DNA of 64,000 bases from Lentisphaerae bacterium WC36 (GTDB lineage Bacteria; Verrucomicrobiota; Lentisphaeria; Victivallales; SZUA-371): assembly GCA_020683205.1 (NCBI GenBank), contig CP085689.1, positions 3,404,230 to 3,468,229 on the forward strand. The letters are read 5' to 3'. The notes below the pieces were generated by a model. That model ran no database searches and had not been told where the DNA came from. It worked only from the letters and a program-made list of their open reading frames with translations. Numbering within the stretch: position 1 is the stretch's first letter; the number at the start of each line of letters is the position of its first letter. This document shows positions 11,797 through 33,307 of the stretch, one piece after another. The translations under genes and the position numbers were made by a program.

Positions 11797-13269
11797 GTGA
11801 AAACGTATCCAATAAATTTGTTACTAGAAGGCAAAAAGTGCATTGTTGTTGGTGGAGGTAAGGTTGCGACTAGAAAGTTACAGCGTTTGATGGAGGTCAA
11901 AGCAGTTGTGACTGTAATTTCACCAAAGCCTACTCAGGCAATCATTCAATATGCTTTAGAGGGAAAAATTACATTATTAGATCGCAGTTTTGATGAGGAA
12001 AAAGATTTCGAAAATGTCTATTTAGCATATTTTGCTACTGATGACCGTGCATTAAACAAAAAATTATTAAATATTGCGCAGAGTAAAAAAATTATTAGTT
12101 GCTGTGTCGATCGGAATTGGCATGATGCGGATTTTATTACGCCTGCTGCTGTCAGTAGCGATGATTTGACTATTGCGATTAGTAGTGAAGGAGTTGCGTG
12201 TCGTAAAACAAAATTAATTAAAGAAAATATTGGCCGCCACATTGAATCGATAGAGACTACAGAACTAGTGGTCATTGGAACAGATCATAATTATATGACA
12301 TTAAAAGAGCGTGAACAAATTCACCTCAATGGTGAAGTTATGAATGAAGTCGCTGAAAAATTAGGTTGTGTGTGGGGCGTGCATGGGTTTGCTTTGTTAA
12401 ATACTTGTAATCGTGTTGAATTTTTTGGAGCAGCTCAATGTTCAAAAACAGTGATTGAAATGATTAAATTGATTATGGGTTTTGACCATTTTTCTGAAGA
12501 TAAATATTATGTTAAAACTGGTTATGAAGCATTTGAACATATGTGTTTGACTGGTTCGGGAATGTATTCGCAAACACCAGGTGAGAACCATATTAGTGCA
12601 CAGATTAAAGAAGCATGCAATATCGCATTAGAGCATAATTGGGCTGGAACATTAATTCAATCATTAAGTGATAATATTATTCATGTTACTCGTCAGATTC
12701 GTGCGGCAGTTGCGCCTATTTTAAAAAGTTATGAGATTGAAGATTTAGCGCTTAAATATATTCTAGATACTAGTGGCACAAAATCATTTGAAAATAAAAC
12801 AATTTTGATTGCAGGCACTGGAATCATTGGTCAATCATTACGTGAAAAATTACAAGCTGTTAAGAATTGTGAATTGATTGTGGTATATTATTCTCAAAAA
12901 CCAAAAAGTGCTGACAATGTTACAGTGGTTCAGTTAGATGATATTGCTCAATGTTTGCCATTAGCAGATTATGTTATAACTGCGATGTCTAGCCCAAAAG
13001 CGATAATTAATGCAACTAATTCAGCAAACATTCGCAAAAATGCCATTGCTGTAGATTTGGGTTTACCACGTAATATTGATTTTGAGATTGATAATTGTGA
13101 AGCTAACAGTTTTGATTGCGCAGATATTGAAGATTTAAAACATTGGCACCGTAAATATAATTGCGATTTAAATGAAGTTAGAAAAATCGCTGATAATGTA
13201 ATTAATGAACACAAGGATATTTATGAAAGATTTAGAAAAAGTTTTATTGACGGGCGCCAGGGACAGTAA
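11797..13269 (+). CDS. hemA: Fusion: precorrin-2 dehydrogenase (SirC/CysG-N) + glutamyl-tRNA reductase
   Basis: 490 residues, GTG start. Residues 1 to about 150 are a siroheme-synthase N-domain (NAD motif VVGGGKVATRK, then FITPAAVSSDDLTIAIS), which oxidises precorrin-2 to sirohydrochlorin. Residues 155-490 are glutamyl-tRNA reductase: LNTCNRVEFFG with the catalytic Cys near residue 204, PGENHISAQIKEA for substrate binding, and NADPH motif ILIAGTGIIG. The reductase part is about 335 residues, so most of the usual C-terminal dimerisation domain seems absent. It heads the operon and overlaps the next gene by 47 nt. Such fusions are known in other bacteria. Confidence 0.9.
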   Translation: MKTYPINLLLEGKKCIVVGGGKVATRKLQRLMEVKAVVTVISPKPTQAIIQYALEGKITLLDRSFDEEKDFENVYLAYFATDDRALNKKLLNIAQSKKIISCCVDRNWHDADFITPAAVSSDDLTIAISSEGVACRKTKLIKENIGRHIESIETTELVVIGTDHNYMTLKEREQIHLNGEVMNEVAEKLGCVWGVHGFALLNTCNRVEFFGAAQCSKTVIEMIKLIMGFDHFSEDKYYVKTGYEAFEHMCLTGSGMYSQTPGENHISAQIKEACNIALEHNWAGTLIQSLSDNIIHVTRQIRAAVAPILKSYEIEDLALKYILDTSGTKSFENKTILIAGTGIIGQSLREKLQAVKNCELIVVYYSQKPKSADNVTVVQLDDIAQCLPLADYVITAMSSPKAIINATNSANIRKNAIAVDLGLPRNIDFEIDNCEANSFDCADIEDLKHWHRKYNCDLNEVRKIADNVINEHKDIYERFRKSFIDGRQGQ

Positions 13270-15445
13270 ATTATCGGTTGCACAGTCTTTAAATGCGATT
13301 GCAAAATTAGAAGAAATCTTGAATAAAGATTCATTTCAAAATAATAAAATTAAGTTTCAATTAATAGAATTTTCTTCACCTGGGGATCGTGATCAAAATA
13401 CTGATTTGCGAAACAGTGCGACTGATTTTTTTTCTAAAGATTTAGATGATGCGCTGGTTAATGGTGAAATTGACTGTGCAATTCATAGCGCAAAAGATTT
13501 ACCAAATATTATTGAAAACGTTAACGATAAAGTTGATTTAATGTGGTTACCGTGGAGCGAAGATGTTCGTGATGCAATAATTTTACCTATTGGTAAGACT
13601 ATGAAAGATTTACCATCAAATCCACGCATTGGTATTAGCAGTGAACGTCGCGAAAAATATTGTGCGAAGCGTTTCCCTAACGGCATTCAAATGAACATTC
13701 GTGGCAACATCAATCGCCGTTTGGAACAATTAGATAATGGTGATTACGATTTATTAATTATGGCTGTTGCTGCATTAAATCGTTTAGGTTTAGATGAACG
13801 CTTAAATGAAATTATTAGTGAAAAAGATTTACCACCGCCATTTGGACAAGGAACTTTGGCGATTACCTTCAGAAAAGGTGACCAGTTTTTTATGGATTTA
13901 AGAAAAGCATTCGCTAAGAGTGTTGTTTTTGCTGGGGCTGGAATTGGTACACATTTAAATACTACAAATGGTGTAATTAATGAATTAAAAAATTGTGATG
14001 TGTGCTTGTATGACGCATTATGTCCACAGGAATTAATTGATTATGTGCCGAAAAAAGCACAGAAAATTTTTGTAGGCAAACGCGTTGGTCAACATTCGCA
14101 TTCTCAGGATGAAATTAATCAATTAATTTTAGATTTTGCTCGTAAAGGCTGCAAAGTTGTACGTTTAAAAGGTGGTGACCCTGGAATTTTTGGGCGATTG
14201 GCCGAAGAAGTCGAGATGTTGAATAATTATCAATTACCATATAAAGTTTTGTCAGGAATTTCGAGTCTAAATTTAGCGACAACATGTACTGGATTATTAA
14301 CGACACGTCGTGATTTAAATCGCGGTTTTACAGTAGCGACACCTAGAAAATCAGGTTCAGGAAAATTGGAATGGTTCAACGAAAATGATCGCCAGAAATT
14401 TACCCAAATTTTATTTATGGGGGCAACTGAAGTTGTTAATATTGCTAAAAAGTTAATAAATGATGATAACTATGGTCCAATGACTCCAATTAGTATTGTT
14501 TTTTCAGCAGGATTGCCTGAACAAAAAATTGTGTGTGGGACATTAGAAAATATTGCTGAAAAAGTTGAACAATTCCCGAAAAAACAGCCAGGTTTAATTT
14601 TGATTGGCGAAGCTGCAAACGAAAAGTTTTTATATCAGAATAATGGAGCGTTAGCAGATAAAAGAGTGTTATTCACTGGAAGCAAGGCAATTAGTTTAAA
14701 AGCAATCAATGCTGTGACTGAGAGTGGTGGTGTTTGCGTTAATTTACCAATGATTGATTTACAGACGGTGCCATTAGCAGAAAATGATTTTAACGAAATT
14801 TGCAGTGCTGACATTGTAATTGTACCGTCGCCTTCAATTGCTGAATTATTAATTAATGAATTTATTGACAATGAAATCTCAATCACTAAATTACCAAAAA
14901 TTGCCGTTTGTGGAACGGGTACTGGTGAAATTTTTAAAAAATATGGTATTATTGTTGACATTGTTGCTGATTACAATTACGGAGCTGATGGTCTAGCATT
15001 TAAGTTAGAGCAAATTTTCGGTGATAATGATAAATTAAAATCTGAAACAAAAATTGTTCGTTTAAAAAGTAACATTGCTCCAGCTAAATTGGTTAATAAT
15101 TTAACTGAAAATGGTTTCAAAAATATTAATGAAATCACTGTAGTTAAGAACAAGGCACAGTGTTACAGTAGCGATGATTTAAATTGTTGTGGTGATATTA
15201 ATGCAGTGATGTTTTGCAGCCCATCAGCAGTTACGTCATTTGTAAAAAATTTTAGTGAAAAATCACTAATAAACAAAGATATTATTGTTATTGGCGAACC
15301 GACAAAAAATAAAGTTATTGAATTAGCAAATATTAAAGATAATAATTCAGAAATTAATTTAATTGTTGCCCATGAAGCAACTGTTAATGCGATGGTTGAA
15401 AGTTATATTTATGATTGCGTTGCTAAAAAAATATTTGGAGCATAA
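13223..15445 (+). CDS. Fusion: porphobilinogen deaminase (short) + uroporphyrinogen III methyltransferase + uroporphyrinogen III synthase
   Basis: About 740 residues in three parts. Residues 1-230 are HemC-like (ARDSKLSVAQS; catalytic Asp in AIHSAKDLP near residue 92; PPPFGQGTLAI at 204-213). Residues 232-463 are an SUMT/CobA methyltransferase (VVFAGAGIG, FVGKRVGQHSHSQDEIN, VVRLKGGDPGIFGR). Residues 480-740 are HemD (RVLFTGSKA onward). HemC domain 3, which normally carries the GGC cofactor-attachment cysteine, is missing. The start at 13223 has AAGGAT upstream; an ATG 18 nt earlier is less likely. With the preceding SirC-HemA fusion it covers five steps in two polypeptides. Confidence 0.88.
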   Translation: MKDLEKVLLTGARDSKLSVAQSLNAIAKLEEILNKDSFQNNKIKFQLIEFSSPGDRDQNTDLRNSATDFFSKDLDDALVNGEIDCAIHSAKDLPNIIENVNDKVDLMWLPWSEDVRDAIILPIGKTMKDLPSNPRIGISSERREKYCAKRFPNGIQMNIRGNINRRLEQLDNGDYDLLIMAVAALNRLGLDERLNEIISEKDLPPPFGQGTLAITFRKGDQFFMDLRKAFAKSVVFAGAGIGTHLNTTNGVINELKNCDVCLYDALCPQELIDYVPKKAQKIFVGKRVGQHSHSQDEINQLILDFARKGCKVVRLKGGDPGIFGRLAEEVEMLNNYQLPYKVLSGISSLNLATTCTGLLTTRRDLNRGFTVATPRKSGSGKLEWFNENDRQKFTQILFMGATEVVNIAKKLINDDNYGPMTPISIVFSAGLPEQKIVCGTLENIAEKVEQFPKKQPGLILIGEAANEKFLYQNNGALADKRVLFTGSKAISLKAINAVTESGGVCVNLPMIDLQTVPLAENDFNEICSADIVIVPSPSIAELLINEFIDNEISITKLPKIAVCGTGTGEIFKKYGIIVDIVADYNYGADGLAFKLEQIFGDNDKLKSETKIVRLKSNIAPAKLVNNLTENGFKNINEITVVKNKAQCYSSDDLNCCGDINAVMFCSPSAVTSFVKNFSEKSLINKDIIVIGEPTKNKVIELANIKDNNSEINLIVAHEATVNAMVESYIYDCVAKKIFGA

Positions 15446-15446
15446 A

Positions 15447-16457
15447 ATGCATATTAATGATAAAAATAATAATCAATTTTTCCCAAACGTTAGATTACGT
15501 CGTTTGCGTCAGAATCAGACGATTCGTGATATGGTTAGTGAACCGATGCCAGGCCCTGAAAAATTTATGTGGCCAGTATTTGTTGTTGAGGGTAGAGGTA
15601 TAAAAATCCCAATCAAATCAATGCCAGGACAATTTCGTTATTCGGTTGATGTGCTAATTGAAGATATGACCGAAGTTTACGACATGGGTGTGCGTTCAGT
15701 TATGGTTTTTGGTGTCATTGATGAAGAATTTAAAGATTTTACAGCGTCATATGCAATGCGTGAAGAAGGAGTGGTGCAACAAGCTGTTAGAGCATTAAAG
15801 GCAAATTTCCCAGATTTATTAGTGGCGACAGACGTCTGCGTTTGCGAATACACCAGTCATGGACATTGTGGCATTTTAACAGATTATGGCTGTGTCGATA
15901 ACGATAAAAGTTTAAATTTATTATCAAAAATGGCCGTTAGTCATGCGGCTGCTGGAGCTGATTGTGTTGCTCCGAGTGCTATGATGGATGGACAAATTTT
16001 AGCAATTAGAAATGCTTTAACTGAAAACAAATTTAATGATACGATTTTGATGGCATATTCAACGAAATTTGCTTCAGGTTGTTATGGACCATTCCGTGAA
16101 GCAGCCGACTCAACACCAAGTAGTGGTGACCGAAAAGCGTATCAAGCTGATTATCGTGACGCAAATAGTGCATTGCGTGAATCATATTTTGATGAAGTTG
16201 AAGGTGCTGATATTTTAATGGTTAAGCCTGCAATGTTTTATTTGGATTTGATTAGCAAAGTGAAAGAAAATTCACAGTTGCCAGTTGCTGCATACAACGT
16301 TAGTGGCGAATATTCAATGTTGATTGCTACTGCTCAAAATGGTTGGGGCGATTTAAAGCAATTAGTGCGTGAATCAACATTTGCATTAAAACGTAGTGGT
16401 ACAGATATTTTCATTTCATATTGGGCAAATCAGTACAGCACAATGTTTAGGGATTAA
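15447..16457 (+). CDS. hemB: Delta-aminolevulinic acid dehydratase
   Basis: Condenses two 5-aminolevulinate molecules to porphobilinogen. 336 residues. Zinc-type metal site CVCEYTSHGHCG, then DYGCVDND; Schiff-base lysines in MAYSTKFASGCYGPFREAADS and in LMVKPAMFYLD. The start at 15447 has TTGGAG 6 nt upstream; an upstream in-frame extension runs inside the previous gene and is rejected. The gene follows the HemC-CobA-HemD fusion with no gap to speak of, so co-expression is likely. Confidence 0.96.
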   Translation: MHINDKNNNQFFPNVRLRRLRQNQTIRDMVSEPMPGPEKFMWPVFVVEGRGIKIPIKSMPGQFRYSVDVLIEDMTEVYDMGVRSVMVFGVIDEEFKDFTASYAMREEGVVQQAVRALKANFPDLLVATDVCVCEYTSHGHCGILTDYGCVDNDKSLNLLSKMAVSHAAAGADCVAPSAMMDGQILAIRNALTENKFNDTILMAYSTKFASGCYGPFREAADSTPSSGDRKAYQADYRDANSALRESYFDEVEGADILMVKPAMFYLDLISKVKENSQLPVAAYNVSGEYSMLIATAQNGWGDLKQLVRESTFALKRSGTDIFISYWANQYSTMFRD

Positions 16458-16506
16458 CATTAATCAAGAAATTAAATTACCAAATAAAAAACAGACATCA
16501 AAAAAA

Positions 16507-17802
16507 ATGAAAAATATGAAAAAAGACAATTCAAAAAAATTATTCGTTGAAGCGTGTAAATATATCCCTGGAGGCGTTAACAGTCCCGTTCGTGCATTTA
16601 ACAGTGTTGAAACCGATCCAGTTTTTATAAAAAAAGGCAAAGGCGTAACAATTACTGATGTTGATGGAAATGAATACACAGATTTTTGTGGTTCATGGGG
16701 TCCATTAATTTTAGGACATGCAAACGATGAAGTTATTAGCGAAGTACAAAAAGTTGCGGCTGACGGGTTAAGTTTTGGGACTTGTAATCCGTTAGAAGTT
16801 GAAATGGCGGAATTGTTTTGTAGTTTAGTGCCACATGCTGATATGGTACGCATGGTTAGCAGCGGTACAGAAGCAGTTATGACTGCGTTGCGTTTAGCAC
16901 GTGGTGTAACAAACCGTCGTTATATTATCAAATTTAACGGAAATTATCATGGGCATAGTGACAGTTTGCTAGTTGCTGCTGGAAGTGGTTTATTAACTAA
17001 TAATGTATCGTCATCAAAAGGTGTTACAGAAAAAACAGTTTCAGAAATAATTGTTTTAGAGTACAATGATTTAGATGCTGTTGCAAAGGCATTTGATGAA
17101 TATAAAGACGAAATAGCGGCAGTTATTGTTGAGCCTGTTGCTGGAAATATGGGTTTAATCCAACCTCAAGATGGATTTTTAAAGGGGCTGCGTGAATTGT
17201 GTACAGAAAATGGTTCGTGCTTAATTTTTGATGAAGTTATTAATGGATTCAGATTCTATTGTGGCAGTTTTGCTTCAGTGTGTGGAATCACTCCAGATAT
17301 CTCGACGTTCGGAAAAATTATTGGTGGCGGAATGCCTGTTGGTGCAGTTTGTGCTTCAAAAGAAATTATGGAACATTTAGCTCCGATGGGTGAAGTTTAT
17401 CAAGCTGGAACACTAAGTGGAAATCCAGTTGCATTAGCGGCTGGCATTAAAACATTAGAAATTTTAAAACGTGAAAATCCATATCCTCAGATGGCAGAGT
17501 TAGCAGAAAAAGTAGCAACTGAAATTAACGATTACGCAAAAGAAAAAAATGTTGCGATTAATGTTAAACATTTTATGGGCGTGTTTACAATTTTCTTTAC
17601 TAATAAAGAACAATTAGTAAATTTAAATGACGTTAAAGAGTGTGACACTAAACGTTTTGCTGAATATTTCCGTTTTATGCTAGATAGTGGATTTTATGTT
17701 TCGCCATCGCAGTTTGAGTTGAATTTCGTTTCGGCAGTTCACTCAGAAGTTGAAATAGATAAATTTATCGCAACTGTAAAAGCGTTTATTGATACGTTAT
17801 AA
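16507..17802 (+). CDS. hemL: Glutamate-1-semialdehyde 2,1-aminomutase
   Basis: PLP enzyme converting glutamate-1-semialdehyde (the product of the HemA domain) to 5-aminolevulinate. About 432 residues, the family's normal length, beginning MKNMKKDNSKKLF. Motifs: YIPGGVNSPVRAF, SSGTEAVMTALRLARG, NGNYHGHSD, EPVAGNMG, and STFGKIIGGGMPVGA with the PLP lysine. The ATGs at 16507 and 16516 are both possible; no clear Shine-Dalgarno decides. Earlier in-frame codons overlap hemB and are unlikely to be used. Confidence 0.95.
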   Translation: MKNMKKDNSKKLFVEACKYIPGGVNSPVRAFNSVETDPVFIKKGKGVTITDVDGNEYTDFCGSWGPLILGHANDEVISEVQKVAADGLSFGTCNPLEVEMAELFCSLVPHADMVRMVSSGTEAVMTALRLARGVTNRRYIIKFNGNYHGHSDSLLVAAGSGLLTNNVSSSKGVTEKTVSEIIVLEYNDLDAVAKAFDEYKDEIAAVIVEPVAGNMGLIQPQDGFLKGLRELCTENGSCLIFDEVINGFRFYCGSFASVCGITPDISTFGKIIGGGMPVGAVCASKEIMEHLAPMGEVYQAGTLSGNPVALAAGIKTLEILKRENPYPQMAELAEKVATEINDYAKEKNVAINVKHFMGVFTIFFTNKEQLVNLNDVKECDTKRFAEYFRFMLDSGFYVSPSQFELNFVSAVHSEVEIDKFIATVKAFIDTL

Positions 17803-17853: not shown

Positions 17854-18465
17854 ATGGCAGAAATTTTTTTAATAACAGGTGGAGCTCGTAGCGGTAAAAG
17901 TTGTTTTGCTGAAGGTTTAGCTGATAAATTGTTTTGTGATTTTGAAAAAAATCATGATTCAATTAGCAGAAAAGCATACATTGCTACTGCGGTTGTTTTT
18001 GATGATGAAATGCGTGAACGCGTAAGAAAACATCAAGAACAGCGTGCTACACATAATTGGGTTACATTTGAGGAACAATTAAATTTAGCCAAAAAATTAG
18101 AAGAGTGTCAAAAAAATAATTTTAAGGTAATTTTAGTTGATTGCTTAACGTTGTGGATCAATAATTTGTTGTTTGATGCTGAACAAAAAAATCAAGTTTT
18201 TACTGAAGAGATGATGGTTGAAAATGTTCAAAATATTATCAAAGTATGTGAAAAAGCGCCAAAAGATTTTAAAATTATTTTTGTTATTAATGAAGTAGGT
18301 TTAGGGATTGTCCCTGAGAATAAATTAGCAAGAATTTTTAGAGATTTATCAGGACGCTGTTCGCAAACATTAGCAAAATATGCGGACAATGTTTATTTCG
18401 TGTCATGTGGAATTCCATTGCAATTAAAGGGAAGTTATAATGCAGCTTTTAGAGTCGACAATTAA
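17854..18465 (+). CDS. cobU: Adenosylcobinamide kinase / guanylyltransferase
   Basis: 203 residues. Phosphorylates adenosylcobinamide and transfers GMP from GTP, activating it for the lower-ligand step of B12 assembly. P-loop GGARSGKS at the N-terminus, then ATAVVFDDEMRERVRKHQEQR with the family's His and Arg, VDCLTLWINNLL, and NEVGLGIVPENKLARIFRDLSG. It overlaps cobT by 26 nt. Its position after hem genes and CobA/SirC domains suggests that this operon serves corrinoid as well as heme-type tetrapyrroles. Confidence 0.93.
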   Translation: MAEIFLITGGARSGKSCFAEGLADKLFCDFEKNHDSISRKAYIATAVVFDDEMRERVRKHQEQRATHNWVTFEEQLNLAKKLEECQKNNFKVILVDCLTLWINNLLFDAEQKNQVFTEEMMVENVQNIIKVCEKAPKDFKIIFVINEVGLGIVPENKLARIFRDLSGRCSQTLAKYADNVYFVSCGIPLQLKGSYNAAFRVDN

Positions 18466-21301: not shown

Positions 21302-22402
21302 ATGACTATTAATTTAATTTTTATCTATATCGCAGCTTTTGTAAGTGCAACTGCTTTGAGTTTAATTTTAACTCCAGTAAGCATCAAAATTGCTTTAAAG
21401 ACAAATTTTTTTGATAAACCTCAAGAGGGAACTCATAATCTTCATTCGCAAGCGACGCCGTTTTTAGGTGGAGTGGCGATGTTTGTCAGTTGGTTACTGA
21501 CTATTTTAGTAGGATGGCTAACTTTTTGGTTGTTTAAAAATAAAATGTTTTCTGCCGAGATGTTAAAGGAATTGGTTGGCTTTAATAATCGTCATGGAGC
21601 ATTAATTGCAATAATTCTTGCAGTTGGACTTATTACAATTATAGGCTTGATTGATGATAAATATAAACTCAAGGCATCGACTAAATTATTTGGGCAAATT
21701 ATTGCATCTTTAATGGTGGTATTTCTTGGTGGTGTTAAGATGATTATTATTTTTAATAACCCAATTTGGGTTGGATTTACCTCAGTAATGTGGATTCTAG
21801 TGCTTATTAATGCGATAAATTTTCTCGATAACATGGATGGCCTTGCGGCTGGAATTAGTGCCATTGCATTTTTCTTTTTTGTGTTAATTAGTGCTATTAA
21901 CGGTCAATTTTTAATTGCAACTTTAGCTGCGATTTGTTGTGGAGCAACGGTTGGATTTTGGTTTTTTAATCACACACCAGCGCGAATCTTTATGGGGGAC
22001 AGCGGAAGTCATTTTCTTGGAATGCTTTTAGCTGTGATTAGTATGGCGACAACTTTTTACGATAGTAATTCTAATTTGCCAATTTACGTGCACTTTCTGG
22101 TGCCGTTATTTGTGTTGGGAGTGCCGTTATTTGATGCTGTTGCGGTGATGATAATTCGTTATAAATTGAAGACTCCATTTCATATTGGCGATCATAATCA
22201 TCTCTCACATCGTTTTGTTCGTATGGGATTGACACGTAAGAGTGCGGTGCTAATTATTCACTTACTTACTGTGCTGCTAGGCTTAAGTTCGTTACTTATT
22301 TTGTGTGGAAAAATTGATATTGCAATTATCGCCATTGCTCAAGGATTAATGTTGTTTGCCGTTATTAGTATTCTACAATATTGTGTAATTAAGAAAAAAT
22401 AA
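21302..22402 (+). CDS. MraY/WecA/TagO-family glycosyl-1-phosphate transferase
   Basis: 366 residues, about ten to eleven membrane segments. It transfers a sugar-1-phosphate (usually GlcNAc-1-P) from UDP-sugar to undecaprenyl phosphate at the inner membrane, the first step of O-antigen or other glycan assembly. Motifs: TPFLGGVAMF, LIDDKY (DDxxD-type), NFLDNMDGLAAG, FMGDSGSHFLG and the cytoplasmic HNHLSHRFVRMG. The WecA/TagO side of the family fits better than MraY because of the DNMDGLAAG and H-x-x-HR segments. No other glycan assembly gene is adjacent apart from waaF 3 kb away. Confidence 0.9.
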   Translation: MTINLIFIYIAAFVSATALSLILTPVSIKIALKTNFFDKPQEGTHNLHSQATPFLGGVAMFVSWLLTILVGWLTFWLFKNKMFSAEMLKELVGFNNRHGALIAIILAVGLITIIGLIDDKYKLKASTKLFGQIIASLMVVFLGGVKMIIIFNNPIWVGFTSVMWILVLINAINFLDNMDGLAAGISAIAFFFFVLISAINGQFLIATLAAICCGATVGFWFFNHTPARIFMGDSGSHFLGMLLAVISMATTFYDSNSNLPIYVHFLVPLFVLGVPLFDAVAVMIIRYKLKTPFHIGDHNHLSHRFVRMGLTRKSAVLIIHLLTVLLGLSSLLILCGKIDIAIIAIAQGLMLFAVISILQYCVIKKK

Positions 22403-25481: not shown

Positions 25482-26582
25482 ATGCAATATAACTGGTTTC
25501 CTGTTCCTAAATTAGCAACAGCCCCACAACAAAAAAGAGTCAAGTTAAGCGCAGAGTGTTTAAAAAACGGTATTATTGTTCGTTCTCCAAATTGGCTAGG
25601 TGATGCCGTAATGACTTTGCCTGCACTAGTGCAATTAAGAAAGTTGCTTGGTGATAATGGTAAATTATATGTGGTTTGTCCACCCGGTCTTAAAAAATTT
25701 TATGAGATGACGAATGTTGTTAGCGAAGTTGTGCCTCTTCATAAAGCTCATAAACGTTGGAGTGAAGATGATATCTTGGCTGTACGTGATTTGAATTGTG
25801 ACATTGCTTTGATGTTTAATAATTCACTACGTGATGCAATTTATTTCTTTTTGAGCCATGTGAAGTATCGTTTTGGAGCAGCAGCACGGTTTCGTGGTTT
25901 TCTGTTGAAGCGTGCCTTTAAATATCCAAAGCGTGTTTCTGGGAATTTAAATAAACTTCACCATGCTGAAAAATACTTAACTATGGCGTATGCTCTTGGT
26001 GCAAAAAAATGGAAAGGAGATATGCCAATATTTACCGTTGCAAAAGAAGAATCAATTATGAGTAACGACGTAAAAAAATTATTAGCAAATAAGCCAATAA
26101 TGTTAATGGCAGCTGGAGCAGCTTATGGTGGTTCCAAACGCTGGAGTTCCAAGAAATTTAATGAAGTTGCTAAACGCTGGATTACAGAGAAAGGTGGTAT
26201 GGTTGGAGTGTTAGGCACTGCAGTTGAAAGTGATATTGCTCAAAAAGTGGTTGGTGATTTAGATGCTGAAAAATGTTTTAATTTAGCGGGTAAAACCGAT
26301 TTTGATGAATTAATTTATTTATTACAAAATTGTGAAATTTGTATTGCAAATGATAGCGGAATTATGCATTTAGCTGGAGCATTAGGGAAAAAAGGAGTGG
26401 CTATTTTTGGTCCCACTGACCCTAGTGCTACTAAACCAGTGTCAGTTTATTGGGACGTCATTATGAATAAAGAACGTTGTGCGCCATGCTTTAAGCGTGA
26501 GTGTCCAAAAAACAAAGCCGTTTGTATGGAAAATGTTTCTGTAGATGAAGTTTGGCATGCAGTAGAAAAATTAACGGATTAA
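25482..26582 (+). CDS. waaF: ADP-heptose:LPS heptosyltransferase (glycosyltransferase family 9)
   Basis: 366 residues. Adds heptose to the inner core of lipopolysaccharide. IIVRSPNWLGDAVMTLPAL is the family's N-terminal signature. The C-terminal half has AAGAAYGGSKRWSSKKF, LAGKTDFDELIYLL, and NDSGIMHLAGALGK with GVAIFGPTDP for nucleotide-sugar binding. Near the C-terminus is a Cys cluster, CAPCFKRECPKNKAVCM, often seen in WaaF. It shows that the cell makes a heptose-containing LPS core, hence an outer membrane. It overlaps nothing; the LD-carboxypeptidase follows 11 nt after its stop. Confidence 0.92.
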   Translation: MQYNWFPVPKLATAPQQKRVKLSAECLKNGIIVRSPNWLGDAVMTLPALVQLRKLLGDNGKLYVVCPPGLKKFYEMTNVVSEVVPLHKAHKRWSEDDILAVRDLNCDIALMFNNSLRDAIYFFLSHVKYRFGAAARFRGFLLKRAFKYPKRVSGNLNKLHHAEKYLTMAYALGAKKWKGDMPIFTVAKEESIMSNDVKKLLANKPIMLMAAGAAYGGSKRWSSKKFNEVAKRWITEKGGMVGVLGTAVESDIAQKVVGDLDAEKCFNLAGKTDFDELIYLLQNCEICIANDSGIMHLAGALGKKGVAIFGPTDPSATKPVSVYWDVIMNKERCAPCFKRECPKNKAVCMENVSVDEVWHAVEKLTD

Positions 26583-26593
26583 AAGTAAATAAA

Positions 26594-27592
26594 ATGTGGG
26601 ATGCAAATATGGAAAAATCTACTGATATTTTAAAACAAATAGTTGAAATTTTACCACAAAATTTGCGTCACATTGCAATAATTTCTCCTGCGGGAGGATG
26701 TTCTCAAGCAGAATTAAATGCTGGTATTGATTTTTTTAAAAAACTGAATTTACAAGTCTCATTGTTTGCTCCAAAAAATGGACAAAATAATGAACAATAT
26801 TCATATTTAGCAGATAGTATAGAGGAGCGAGTTAAGGCGTTTGAGCAGTGTTTTTCTGATGATTCAATAGACTTAATAATTTGTAGCCGAGGTGGCTATG
26901 GTTGTGTGCAGTTAATAGATAAAATCAATTGGAATTTAGTTAAAAAACGTCAAGAATACAAACCATTGCCAATTGTTGGTTATAGTGATATTACAGCATT
27001 GCATTTAGCAATGTTAAGTTATGTTGACTCTGATAATAGCAACATTGCAATTGCTGGAATTATGAGTAATAGATTACCCTTATTAGTTGAAGAGAGAGAT
27101 ATTTTTAGTTTAAATTCATGGGCAAATGTTATTAAAAATATTTTTAATAAAAATTACAATATTTTAGAAATAACGGATTGTGATTTGAACTTAAATTTAA
27201 CAAATAACGGTGCAATAACGGATGAAGTAAACCTTGTAATGCCGTTGAACTTAGCAGTTTTAGCGTCGTTATGCGGAACTGAATTTTTAACACCAAAATT
27301 GTTTGATAATAAGGTAATCATTCTCGAAGATATTAGCGAACCTTTGTATAAAATTGATCGCTATTTACAGCAGTTAAAACTCAGTGGTGTTTTTCAAAAT
27401 ATTAGAGGAGTGATTGTTGCCGACTTCAAGGATTGCGGTGAATATAGTGACGTTGTTAATTTAGTTTGCGATATTTTTAGTGATAAAGAATATTTTCTTC
27501 AGCTTAAATTCATTGCTAGTAATTTAAATTTTGGACATTCTTTTCCAAGCCGCAGTGTAATATTTAATGATAAAGTAAGTTTTAAATTTTAG
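26594..27592 (+). CDS. LD-carboxypeptidase (peptidase family S66)
   Basis: About 332 residues. Trims the terminal D-Ala from murein tetrapeptides during cell-wall recycling. IAIISPAGGCSQAELNAG starts the fold. ICSRGGYGCVQLI and VGYSDITALHLAM follow, with the nucleophile Ser in GYSD; the Glu is in ILEDISEPLYKIDR and the His in LNFGHSFPS. All three catalytic positions known for S66 are present. Start at 26594 (ATG GTG-rich region) or 26609: no clear ribosome binding site decides. The frame upstream overlaps waaF and is rejected. Confidence 0.88.
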   Translation: MWDANMEKSTDILKQIVEILPQNLRHIAIISPAGGCSQAELNAGIDFFKKLNLQVSLFAPKNGQNNEQYSYLADSIEERVKAFEQCFSDDSIDLIICSRGGYGCVQLIDKINWNLVKKRQEYKPLPIVGYSDITALHLAMLSYVDSDNSNIAIAGIMSNRLPLLVEERDIFSLNSWANVIKNIFNKNYNILEITDCDLNLNLTNNGAITDEVNLVMPLNLAVLASLCGTEFLTPKLFDNKVIILEDISEPLYKIDRYLQQLKLSGVFQNIRGVIVADFKDCGEYSDVVNLVCDIFSDKEYFLQLKFIASNLNFGHSFPSRSVIFNDKVSFKF

Positions 27593-31051: not shown

Positions 31052-33307
31052 TCAAGGCTGAGTGCTTAAAGGTAATGCAAAAATCTCAATATTAGTAATT
31101 TTAGATTCTTTTATTCCATTATTTAAAATTTTATTAAAAGATTCATCTTTAATTGTAGAAAATGCATTATTTTTCACTAAATAAAATGGCAACGCTCCAT
31201 CATTGAACATTGTAATGTATTCATATATTTGTGTGTCCTTAAAAGAAATTTTTACTATAAACGCATAGTCCGTACTGCTTTGAGTATTTTTTCGTAACAA
31301 AAGATTAAAATTATTGCTTTTTGATAGCAAAGCAACTTTTGCATTAGCTGAATTTAAAGGTTGTTTAGTTTTAACATCAATAATTCTTAAAAGCCCGCCA
31401 GATGCAGACCAACTTTTATTTGAAATCACTTTTTGATTGTTAATATCACTATCATTTTTGGCTACTTTTTGGAATAATAACATCGTGTTTGTTAATTTTC
31501 CTTTTTGATCAAAAATTTTATGGTTTGTTAGTAATTTATAGTTTTGTTCAGTTGCTAATTTAAAACGATTTTTTGCCACATCTTCTGGCGTCATTACATT
31601 ACTGTTAAATTGTAAAATGACGTAGTTTTGTGGTTTTTTAAAGTTTAGGTAAGTATCGTTTCTTAATACTAATGGAGCCGCAATTTTTTCATCAGCAGTG
31701 ATTTTTTCTCCAATAGGAATATGTTGTTTTATAATTTTAATTGTTGAGGCGAAGTTTTTTATATCGTGCTCATTGCGTTGTAATGATTGACGCGCTGTAA
31801 AAGGGTAGGGGGATAAGTAATAATTAAGCAGAAAAGTACTAACAAAACAAGCAATAATGCTAGCTTTCAATGTTTTATGGTTATTTTTTAGTTTAACCAA
31901 TCCATAAATGAATGCCAAAAAAATAAATGGTAGGATACATGACTGATATTGTAGCTCAATATTAATGCGAGCTCGCACATCCATTAACAACGTGAAAATT
32001 AAAATTATTAATCCGCCAAACAACAAAGTTGGTTTGCGCCAAATTAAATAACTAAATGGTAAAAGCAGAGTTAGGGTGTAATTAATTGAATTAATGTGAA
32101 AAATTCGTCCCCAGAAAATTTTAGCACGAGTGATTGGAGATAGGAGAATTTCTCCATAGCTATTTCCTAACGACTTATAATAGCTAAAAAATCCATATTT
32201 ATTTAGTGATTCTGGGAGTAAATTTGGCATGATGAATTTGGTCACAACAATAAAATAAATGGTGCTAATAGTAAATAATAATAGCGCCGTTTTAAACTTT
32301 TTTTGGCATAAAAAATATAGTCCAACTCCGAAAAACATTGGAGCCGTAGTTTCTTTGGTTAATAATATTAAGATAAATAAAATCATTGACCAAATGTAAT
32401 GTTTTTTTTCAAAAAGGATCCACAACGTCAATACGAAAGGAATAATGATATATACTCCATGGAAACCATAAAACATTGCTAAATTTAAATTTAACAACGA
32501 AGGCGTAAACAAAATTATTAATGCTGCAATCAATGCTGTCATTTTTGATAATTTTTTAGCACGACAGAAATAGTACACAATCAAACAATTTGCGAATAGA
32601 ATAACTGAATTTAAGACAAAAATTGTATTTAAAAATCTAAATAATGCGACAAAAGGCAGCAAAAAGCCAATCAAAACAGGCATAAAATGCTGCCCCATAA
32701 AATTGTAGTTTAACTGATTAGAAAAAAATAATTTTCCTTTCAAGGTGTTATCAGTAACATTGAGAAATATTCCCCAATCAGAATAGTGTAATTGTCCAGA
32801 ATTTAGGTGCAAATTCTGTAGATAAATTCCATAACCGCACATAATCAAAAATGCGGAAATTAGAATAGTTAAAACGCTTTTGTTGTTTAAATTTAATGCA
32901 ATTTTTATCCGTTTTAAAAAATAATAACTCAAATTGTAACTAATTAGACCACTACTGAAAACAAAAATTAGCATCATTAAATAATTGTCATATGGGAAAA
33001 GCATCAGCAATGCTGGAAGTAGTGAAATAGTAAATTTACCTACTAAACAGCGATTTTTCTTGAAAGAAAAAATGGTTAACATTATTACTGAACTAATGAG
33101 CACACAAGTTATAATTTGGTAGGCATTAATTTTTTCATTATACACAATTTTTTTGACAAAAAACGCACTAGGGAAAACTTTGTCTACTCTAATAATAAAA
33201 CGGTAAATTGCCAATAAAAATATACTTAAGCAACTTAATGATAAAAAATAACAAAAATGCTTATTCTTCAAAAGTAACTTAGTAAAATGTATGAGCAATT
33301 TATTCAT
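31052..33307 (-). CDS. Large DUF2079-like polytopic membrane protein
   Basis: 751 residues, about 12 membrane segments in the first 510 residues and then a soluble C-terminal region. The segment DWGIFLNVTDNTLKGKLFF followed by NYNFMGQHFMPVLIGFLLP matches the pattern I recall for DUF2079 proteins, which resemble glycosyltransferases of the GT-C fold in topology. The Asp of the DWG loop would then be the equivalent catalytic position; that is inference. The start is supported by AAGGA upstream. The gene lies next to an SDR gene in the same direction, 22 nt away. Confidence 0.72.
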   Translation of the reverse strand: MNKLLIHFTKLLLKNKHFCYFLSLSCLSIFLLAIYRFIIRVDKVFPSAFFVKKIVYNEKINAYQIITCVLISSVIMLTIFSFKKNRCLVGKFTISLLPALLMLFPYDNYLMMLIFVFSSGLISYNLSYYFLKRIKIALNLNNKSVLTILISAFLIMCGYGIYLQNLHLNSGQLHYSDWGIFLNVTDNTLKGKLFFSNQLNYNFMGQHFMPVLIGFLLPFVALFRFLNTIFVLNSVILFANCLIVYYFCRAKKLSKMTALIAALIILFTPSLLNLNLAMFYGFHGVYIIIPFVLTLWILFEKKHYIWSMILFILILLTKETTAPMFFGVGLYFLCQKKFKTALLLFTISTIYFIVVTKFIMPNLLPESLNKYGFFSYYKSLGNSYGEILLSPITRAKIFWGRIFHINSINYTLTLLLPFSYLIWRKPTLLFGGLIILIFTLLMDVRARINIELQYQSCILPFIFLAFIYGLVKLKNNHKTLKASIIACFVSTFLLNYYLSPYPFTARQSLQRNEHDIKNFASTIKIIKQHIPIGEKITADEKIAAPLVLRNDTYLNFKKPQNYVILQFNSNVMTPEDVAKNRFKLATEQNYKLLTNHKIFDQKGKLTNTMLLFQKVAKNDSDINNQKVISNKSWSASGGLLRIIDVKTKQPLNSANAKVALLSKSNNFNLLLRKNTQSSTDYAFIVKISFKDTQIYEYITMFNDGALPFYLVKNNAFSTIKDESFNKILNNGIKESKITNIEIFALPLSTQP

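What the first reader, a model, noticed from the sequence alone, without database searches (positions are those of the whole stretch)
13223..15445. HemC part without its third domain in a HemC-CobA-HemD fusion
After PPPFGQGTLAI and a short helix the sequence goes straight into the methyltransferase (VVFAGAGIG). The ~90-residue domain that carries the dipyrromethane cofactor on a Cys in a GGC motif is absent, and no GGC occurs elsewhere. Known porphobilinogen deaminases need that cofactor, so either the cofactor is held differently or another protein supplies the domain.
Basis: partly seen in the sequence, partly recalled or inferred. Interest (0 to 1): 0.65.

Follow-up and report, generated by a model that had tools for sequence, protein, structure and literature searches.

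The report
Pyrrole-chain enzyme missing its cofactor domain
A gene in this bacterium, and its relatives throughout the Chlamydiae and several neighbouring phyla, encodes the enzyme that builds the four-ring backbone of heme and vitamin B12 without the domain that every textbook version uses to hold its essential cofactor, so these bacteria probably build the chain in a different way.

Summary
Window 13205-15445 encodes HemC domains 1-2 joined directly to CobA and HemD; HemC domain 3 (D3), with its cofactor Cys, is absent. The genome has one HemC and no D3, even with a profile tuned to its own phylum. It is not a local oddity. D3-less HemC occurs through the window's order, in 36 of 88 hemC-bearing genomes of its phylum, in all 46 hemC-bearing Chlamydiota genomes of 50 sampled (none has D3), in 13 of 32 Omnitrophota, and sporadically elsewhere. 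On D1-D2 trees it forms one clade (bootstrap 100). Many are free-standing 205-250 aa proteins in complete HemA-HemC-CobA/HemD-HemB-HemL operons, so fusion is not what replaces D3. All catalytic cleft residues are kept, purifying selection is strong, and no cysteine column is conserved. Arg116 (human numbering), which salt-bridges to D3, is 95/95 in D3-bearing HemC and 22/95 in D3-less ones. Best reading: an ancient HemC subfamily that makes the bilane with the primer or growing chain held non-covalently in the D1-D2 cleft. The mechanism is inferred, not shown. Chlamydial HemC is already annotated and NCBIfam has a 241-position short model, but I found no paper discussing the missing cofactor domain.

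The parts
13205..15445 (+). HemC(D1-D2)-CobA-HemD fusion ORF, 746 aa
13250..13888 (+). HemC domains 1-2 (aa 16-228; PF01379, E 1.4e-48)
   Evidence: free-standing homologue L118 models as the D1-D2 part of human/E. coli PBGD, TM 0.84-0.89
13385..13447 (+). Active-site loop with subfamily signature (G60 D61 x D63 ... D74 F75 F76 T/S77 x D/E79 x D81), replacing canonical GGKGLFxKELE
13484..13498 (+). HSAKD motif with catalytic Asp98 (aligned with B. megaterium Asp82) and Lys97; 95/95 conserved in D3-less HemC
13556..13558 (+). Ser118, at the position of human Arg116 (salt bridge to Glu250 of domain 3); Arg in 95/95 D3-bearing HemC, 22/95 D3-less
13889..13921 (+). Junction (aa 229-239) where domain 3 would begin; HemC passes directly into CobA
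13922..14620 (+). CobA (uroporphyrinogen-III C-methyltransferase), aa 240-472
   Evidence: PF00590, TIGR01469 above cut-off
14003..14005 (+). Cys267 in CobA strand 2; invariant in the order's 14 fusions but not in other D3-less fusions
14660..15442 (+). HemD (uroporphyrinogen-III synthase), aa 486-746
   Evidence: PF02602, NF004593
11797..13269 (+). Operon gene: precorrin-2 dehydrogenase-like domain fused to glutamyl-tRNA reductase (SirC-HemA)
15447..16457 (+). Operon gene: HemB (start inferred at Met 15447)
   Evidence: sequence; homologues next to HemC
16396..17802 (+). Operon gene: HemL (true start probably about 16507)
   Evidence: sequence
17854..18465 (+). CobU
   Evidence: PF02283
18440..19528 (+). 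CobT-type phosphoribosyltransferase
   Evidence: PF02277

Best explanation
The HemC part belongs to an ancient porphobilinogen (PBG) deaminase subfamily that lost domain 3 and with it the cysteine that carries the dipyrromethane cofactor. It still makes the linear tetrapyrrole. D1 and D2 form the catalytic cleft; Asp98 drives deamination of PBG; the conserved Arg/Lys/Ser residues grip the acid side chains of the terminal rings. Shown here: absence of D3, single clade, retained cleft residues, purifying selection, pathway context, no conserved Cys. Inferred: the primer (a first PBG, or a free di- or oligopyrrole) and the growing chain are held non-covalently in the cleft, as the last two rings already are in canonical structures, and the bilane leaves directly, in many lineages straight to a fused HemD. 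If PBG is the primer, the first product would be aminomethylbilane, which must then be deaminated or hydrolysed.
For: D3 is absent from the genome, from 60 relatives, from 50 Chlamydiota and from 16 of 17 further genomes reached through loci, the 17th being a broken canonical gene. D3-less HemC is one side of a single branch: 190 rows, SH-aLRT 95; 90 rows without the junction columns, bootstrap 100 / SH-aLRT 99. H94, S95, K97, D98, R149, R193, Q215 and G216 are 95/95; R19, R166 and R172 are 94-95/95. dN/dS is mostly 0.06-0.2. Free-standing forms sit in full operons and model with pLDDT 93.6. No Cys column exceeds 24/95, and four rows have no Cys at all in D1-D2. The D3-partner Arg116 is relaxed. 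In human ES2, S1 and S2 occupy the C1/C2 sites with nearly identical interactions (PMC7907807).
Against: No biochemistry is available. In canonical enzymes the cofactor is covalent and the Cys is intolerant to mutation (PMC10577081), so a tether-free version must stop premature chain release by unknown means. Attachment to a non-Cys residue cannot be excluded by sequence. From memory, aminomethylbilane is a poor HemD substrate.
Confidence: 0.66

Rival explanations
1. The dipyrromethane cofactor is still covalent but attached to another residue: in this order perhaps Cys267 of the CobA domain, elsewhere other residues.
For: Cys267 is invariant in the order's 14 fusions. Ser145 is 95/95 in D3-less against 46/95 in D3-bearing HemC.
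Against: Cys267 is missing in other D3-less fusions (L075, L081, L083, L084, L086, L091), and many D3-less HemC have no CobA or are free-standing. No Cys column exceeds about 25%, and four rows have no Cys in D1-D2. Cys267 lies in a predicted CobA core strand.
Confidence: 0.13
2. A separate or unrecognisable protein supplies the cofactor-bearing domain in trans.
For: A domain too divergent for any profile cannot be formally excluded.
Against: A phylum-tuned D3 profile finds nothing in 22 D3-less genomes at E<=0.1, while it recovers six degenerate D3s at 1.4e-14 or better. No extra conserved ORF lies in the operons. The D3-contact Arg is relaxed.
Confidence: 0.07
3. The fused CobA or HemD domain takes over the role of domain 3.
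For: In the window's phylum every D3-less HemC found is in a fusion; D3 loss and fusion coincide there.
Against: Free-standing D3-less HemC is common in Chlamydiota and Omnitrophota and also occurs in WS1. HemC-HemD fusions lack CobA altogether.
Confidence: 0.09
4. The HemC part is a degenerate or repurposed module and the pathway is fed otherwise.
For: A defining domain is missing, and many relatives in the order have no hemC at all.
Against: Catalytic residues are invariant and dN/dS is low; it is the only HemC in the genome and sits among HemA, HemB, HemL, CobA and HemD; it is kept in 46/50 Chlamydiota and listed among Chlamydiales families in PMC3899948.
Confidence: 0.05

Closest known systems
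Canonical HemC / hydroxymethylbilane synthase (E. coli 1PDA, human 7AAJ/7CCY, B. megaterium 4MLV)
   Same: D1-D2 fold (TM 0.79-0.89 by query length, about 35% identity over 215-226 columns), catalytic Asp and cleft Arg/Lys/Ser, position in the pathway
   Different: No domain 3, no cofactor Cys, altered active-site loop (canonical Lys replaced), loss of the Arg that salt-bridges to D3
Chlamydial HemC / NCBIfam NF002202 (PRK01066, 241 positions)
   Same: Short two-domain HemC; all four D3-less HemC tested match it, and chlamydial HemC falls in the same clade
   Different: The window protein is fused to CobA-HemD; its score on NF002202 is below the curated cut-off. I found no description of the missing cofactor domain
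Short-D3 HemC of other Verrucomicrobiota (L021, L030, L032, L036)
   Same: Reduced C-terminal domain in the same phylum
   Different: They keep the Glu and Cys of D3 and group with canonical HemC
HemC-HemD and CobA-HemD fusions
   Same: Channelled uroporphyrinogen III / precorrin-2 branch
   Different: HemC has no D3 here; in L164 a CobA remnant separates HemC and HemD
Periplasmic-binding-protein-like (venus-flytrap) domains
   Same: Next-best structural matches after PBGD; they bind ligands non-covalently in a two-domain cleft
   Different: No enzymatic relation implied

Membership tests
Hydroxymethylbilane synthase (HemC, EC 2.5.1.61) | Homologous D1-D2 module with transferrin/PBP-like fold | tested here: met
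   PF01379 E 1.4e-48; TIGR00212 165 vs cut-off 164 over positions 3-214 of 293; Foldseek TM 0.89 for a free-standing homologue
Hydroxymethylbilane synthase (HemC, EC 2.5.1.61) | Catalytic Asp in HSxKD and Arg/Lys-lined cleft | tested here: met
   95/95 for K97, D98, R149, R193; R19, R166, R172 94-95/95
Hydroxymethylbilane synthase (HemC, EC 2.5.1.61) | Domain 3 (PF03900) | tested here: not met
Hydroxymethylbilane synthase (HemC, EC 2.5.1.61) | Cofactor-binding Cys in the GGC-type loop | tested here: not met
   No GGC in the protein; no conserved Cys column in the subfamily, whereas the Cys is invariant in 25 aligned D3 domains
Hydroxymethylbilane synthase (HemC, EC 2.5.1.61) | Covalent dipyrromethane cofactor | not testable with these tools
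   Needs mass spectrometry
Hydroxymethylbilane synthase (HemC, EC 2.5.1.61) | PBG to hydroxymethylbilane activity | not testable with these tools
   Genomic context fits; no assay
Short (D3-less, chlamydial-type) HemC clade | Groups with D3-less HemC on D1-D2 trees | tested here: met
   (bootstrap 100 / SH-aLRT 99)
Short (D3-less, chlamydial-type) HemC clade | Signature D63, D74-F75, D81; relaxed Arg116 position | tested here: met
   window has D63, D74, F75, D81 and Ser118
CobA (SUMT) | TIGR01469 domain | tested here: met
   193.8 vs cut-off 185
HemD | PF02602 domain | tested here: met
   E 2.5e-19

The most novel reading that the evidence does not exclude
A whole bacterial clade, including all sampled hemC-bearing Chlamydiota, makes bilane with a cofactor-free PBG deaminase in which PBG itself primes a non-covalently held chain, so that the dipyrromethane cofactor long held essential is dispensable.
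Probability: 0.4. Interest if true: 0.88.

Novelty: new variant of a known kind. Interest (0 to 1): 0.72.

Why it matters
PBG deaminase is the textbook enzyme that builds its own covalent cofactor from its substrate. A naturally two-domain version, kept by selection across several phyla, would show which part of that mechanism is indispensable, provides a natural deletion mutant for testing why the tether exists, and changes what annotation should say about heme and B12 synthesis in Chlamydiota and related phyla.

Tried and rejected
1) Hidden D3 inside the fusion: rejected by domain boundaries and AlphaFold. 2) Second hemC or free D3: none. 3) CobA Cys267 as the new anchor: attractive in the order but absent elsewhere (CobA itself missing). 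4) Fusion replaces D3: rejected as general by free-standing forms. 5) Assembly artefact: rejected by recurrence in many independent assemblies. One apparent D3-less case, L174, was a broken canonical gene whose D3 lies in another frame. 6) Repeated independent loss: not supported, one change on the trees. 8) Literature searches found no discussion of D3-less HemC; the library lacks most subscription journals. 9) No plasmid match.

Full report
What is there. The ORF at 13205-15445 (+) is a 746-aa protein with Pfam domains Porphobil_deam (aa 16-228), TP_methylase/CobA (240-450) and HEM4/HemD (504-707) and no Porphobil_deamC. It lies between a SirC-HemA fusion (11797-13269) and HemB, HemL, CobU and CobT, i.e. 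in a uroporphyrinogen III/precorrin-2/cobalamin operon. AlphaFold on the full protein (20 rows; pLDDT 86.9, pTM 0.84) passes from the last HemC helix (227-233) straight to the first CobA strand (240-244). There is no room for a ~90-residue domain.

Nothing else supplies it. The genome (one contig, 3.66 Mb) has one PF01379 hit and no PF03900 hit. PF03900 is not sensitive enough for all members of this phylum, so I built a D3 profile from 25 D3 domains, including shrunken ones. It finds D3 in all six genomes that PF03900 had missed (E 1.4e-14 to 1.8e-20) and nothing at E<=0.1 in the window's genome, in 21 other D3-less genomes, or in one hemC-less relative.

It is a subfamily, not an oddity. In the order, 14 of 60 genomes have HemC D1-D2, all D3-less fusions, and none has PF03900. 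In the phylum, 88 of 145 have PF01379: 46 also have PF03900, six more have a D3 found by my profile, and the remaining 36 all have the hit in a long frame (498-1080 aa) without a D3 match. In Chlamydiota 46 of 50 genomes have PF01379 and none has PF03900. In Omnitrophota 32 of 58 have PF01379, 19 with and 13 without D3. Named loci add Spirochaetota, Bacteroidota (Paludibacteraceae), candidate division WS1 and an uncultured 'proteobacterium'; their genomes also lack PF03900. Architectures among the D3-less loci are HemC-CobA-HemD, HemC-HemD and free HemC with a tail of 40 aa or less. Free ones end at the D1/D3 boundary and in Omnitrophota sit in tightly packed HemA-HemC-CobA/HemD-HemB-HemL operons with no additional conserved gene.

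One origin. On D1-D2 trees the label D3/no-D3 needs exactly one change: 190 sequences, SH-aLRT 95; 90 sequences under LG+C20 with the junction columns left out, ultrafast bootstrap 100 / SH-aLRT 99, in all 200 bootstrap trees (the bootstrap had not fully settled). The root is not determined; because D3-bearing HemC is near-universal (general knowledge), a single loss followed by vertical and some lateral spread is the simpler reading.

Still an enzyme. Across 95 D3-less sequences the HSxKD Lys and Asp, Arg149, Arg193, Gln215 and Gly216 are invariant, and Arg19, Arg166 and Arg172 are 94-95/95. Asp98 aligns with B. megaterium Asp82, the residue mutated in 5OV4-5OV6. dN/dS of the HemC part is mostly 0.06-0.2, like the fused CobA-HemD part. 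A free-standing member models at pLDDT 93.6 and superposes on D1-D2 of human, E. coli and plant PBGD at TM 0.84-0.89, rmsd 1.4-1.7.

Signs that D3 is truly gone and the cofactor site has changed. Human Arg116 makes a salt bridge to Glu250 in D3, and both positions carry pathogenic variants (PMC10577081). The equivalent Arg is 95/95 in D3-bearing HemC and 22/95 in D3-less HemC, while the Glu250 and Cys261 equivalents are the only invariant residues of D3 itself. The correspondence of window Ser118 to human Arg116 is read through the B. megaterium alignment and my knowledge of the human sequence. The active-site-loop Lys (human K74, which H-bonds the C2 acetate; PMC7907807) is largely replaced by T/P/A/D, and new acids appear at D63 and D74. 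Residues that hold the inner ring positions (human S96, K98, R150, R195, G218; window S95, K97, R149, R193, G216, mapping partly from memory) are kept at 95/95. No Cys column in D1-D2 exceeds 24/95, and four sequences have no Cys there.

How it probably works. In canonical PBGD the incoming rings S1 and S2 take exactly the places of cofactor rings C1 and C2 with nearly identical interactions (PMC7907807). The cleft therefore recognises any terminal pair of rings. A two-domain enzyme could hold a first PBG or short oligopyrrole there non-covalently, add PBG units with the same Asp-driven chemistry, and release the tetrapyrrole without hydrolysis from a tethered hexapyrrole. If PBG is the primer, the chemistry predicts aminomethylbilane first (inference from the direction of chain growth described in PMC7242693). 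A speculative role of the new acids D63/D74 would be to hold the primer's ammonium group. These steps are inferred.

Comparison with the known. NCBIfam already has a 241-position model for a short HemC (NF002202/PRK01066), and a chlamydial 'porphobilinogen deaminase' is listed among Chlamydiales families next to RadA and RNase III (PMC3899948); L126 has the same radA-hemC order. The sequences are thus known and annotated as ordinary HemC; I found no paper in the library that notes the missing cofactor domain. By the membership test the protein fails two defining features of HMBS (D3, cofactor Cys) while meeting fold, catalytic residues and context: it is a sister subfamily that works, most likely, like HMBS but not by the same priming mechanism.

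Limits. There is no biochemistry; most genomes are drafts or MAGs (mitigated by complete ones and by recurrence); the genome-contig search used D3-less motifs, so named loci over-represent that clade, but the phylum-wide PF01379 searches do not. The window's taxon is not told; the order-level relative G018 (locus L007) and the named locus L096, labelled Victivallis vadensis, come from contigs of the same length (77009), so a lentisphaerian is likely.

Noticed in passing
L021, L024, L030, L032, L036, L039, L040, L044: Other Verrucomicrobiota have a strongly shortened HemC domain 3 (about 55-75 aa) that keeps only the Glu and Cys landmarks; PF03900 misses six such genomes.
   Followed up: partly
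L164:4962-6485: Paludibacteraceae HemC-HemD fusion (D3-less) with a ~100-aa C-terminal remnant of CobA between the two, suggesting that HemC-HemD arose from HemC-CobA-HemD by deletion.
   Followed up: partly
L224 (Omnitrophota G269): D3-less HemC whose frame continues into what looks like an HD-type domain (ends ...ILHDIGI in the stretch shown) rather than HemD.
   Followed up: no
L168:4158-5687; L078:416-3082: Omnitrophota HemA fused directly to D3-less HemC; L078 has a SirC-like domain fused ahead of HemC-CobA-HemD.
   Followed up: no
order of the window: 46 of 60 relatives in the order show no hemC at all, including genomes 95-99% complete, so tetrapyrrole synthesis is patchy in the group.
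   Followed up: no
L011, L014, L007, L009: HemC D2-region insertions, and in L011 a HemD stretch made of repeated AQASCLREV-like peptides, in related genomes.
   Followed up: no
window 31052-33307 (-): DUF2079 membrane protein; glycosyltransferases at 21302-22402 and 25482-26582; LD-carboxypeptidase at 26552-27592.
   Followed up: no
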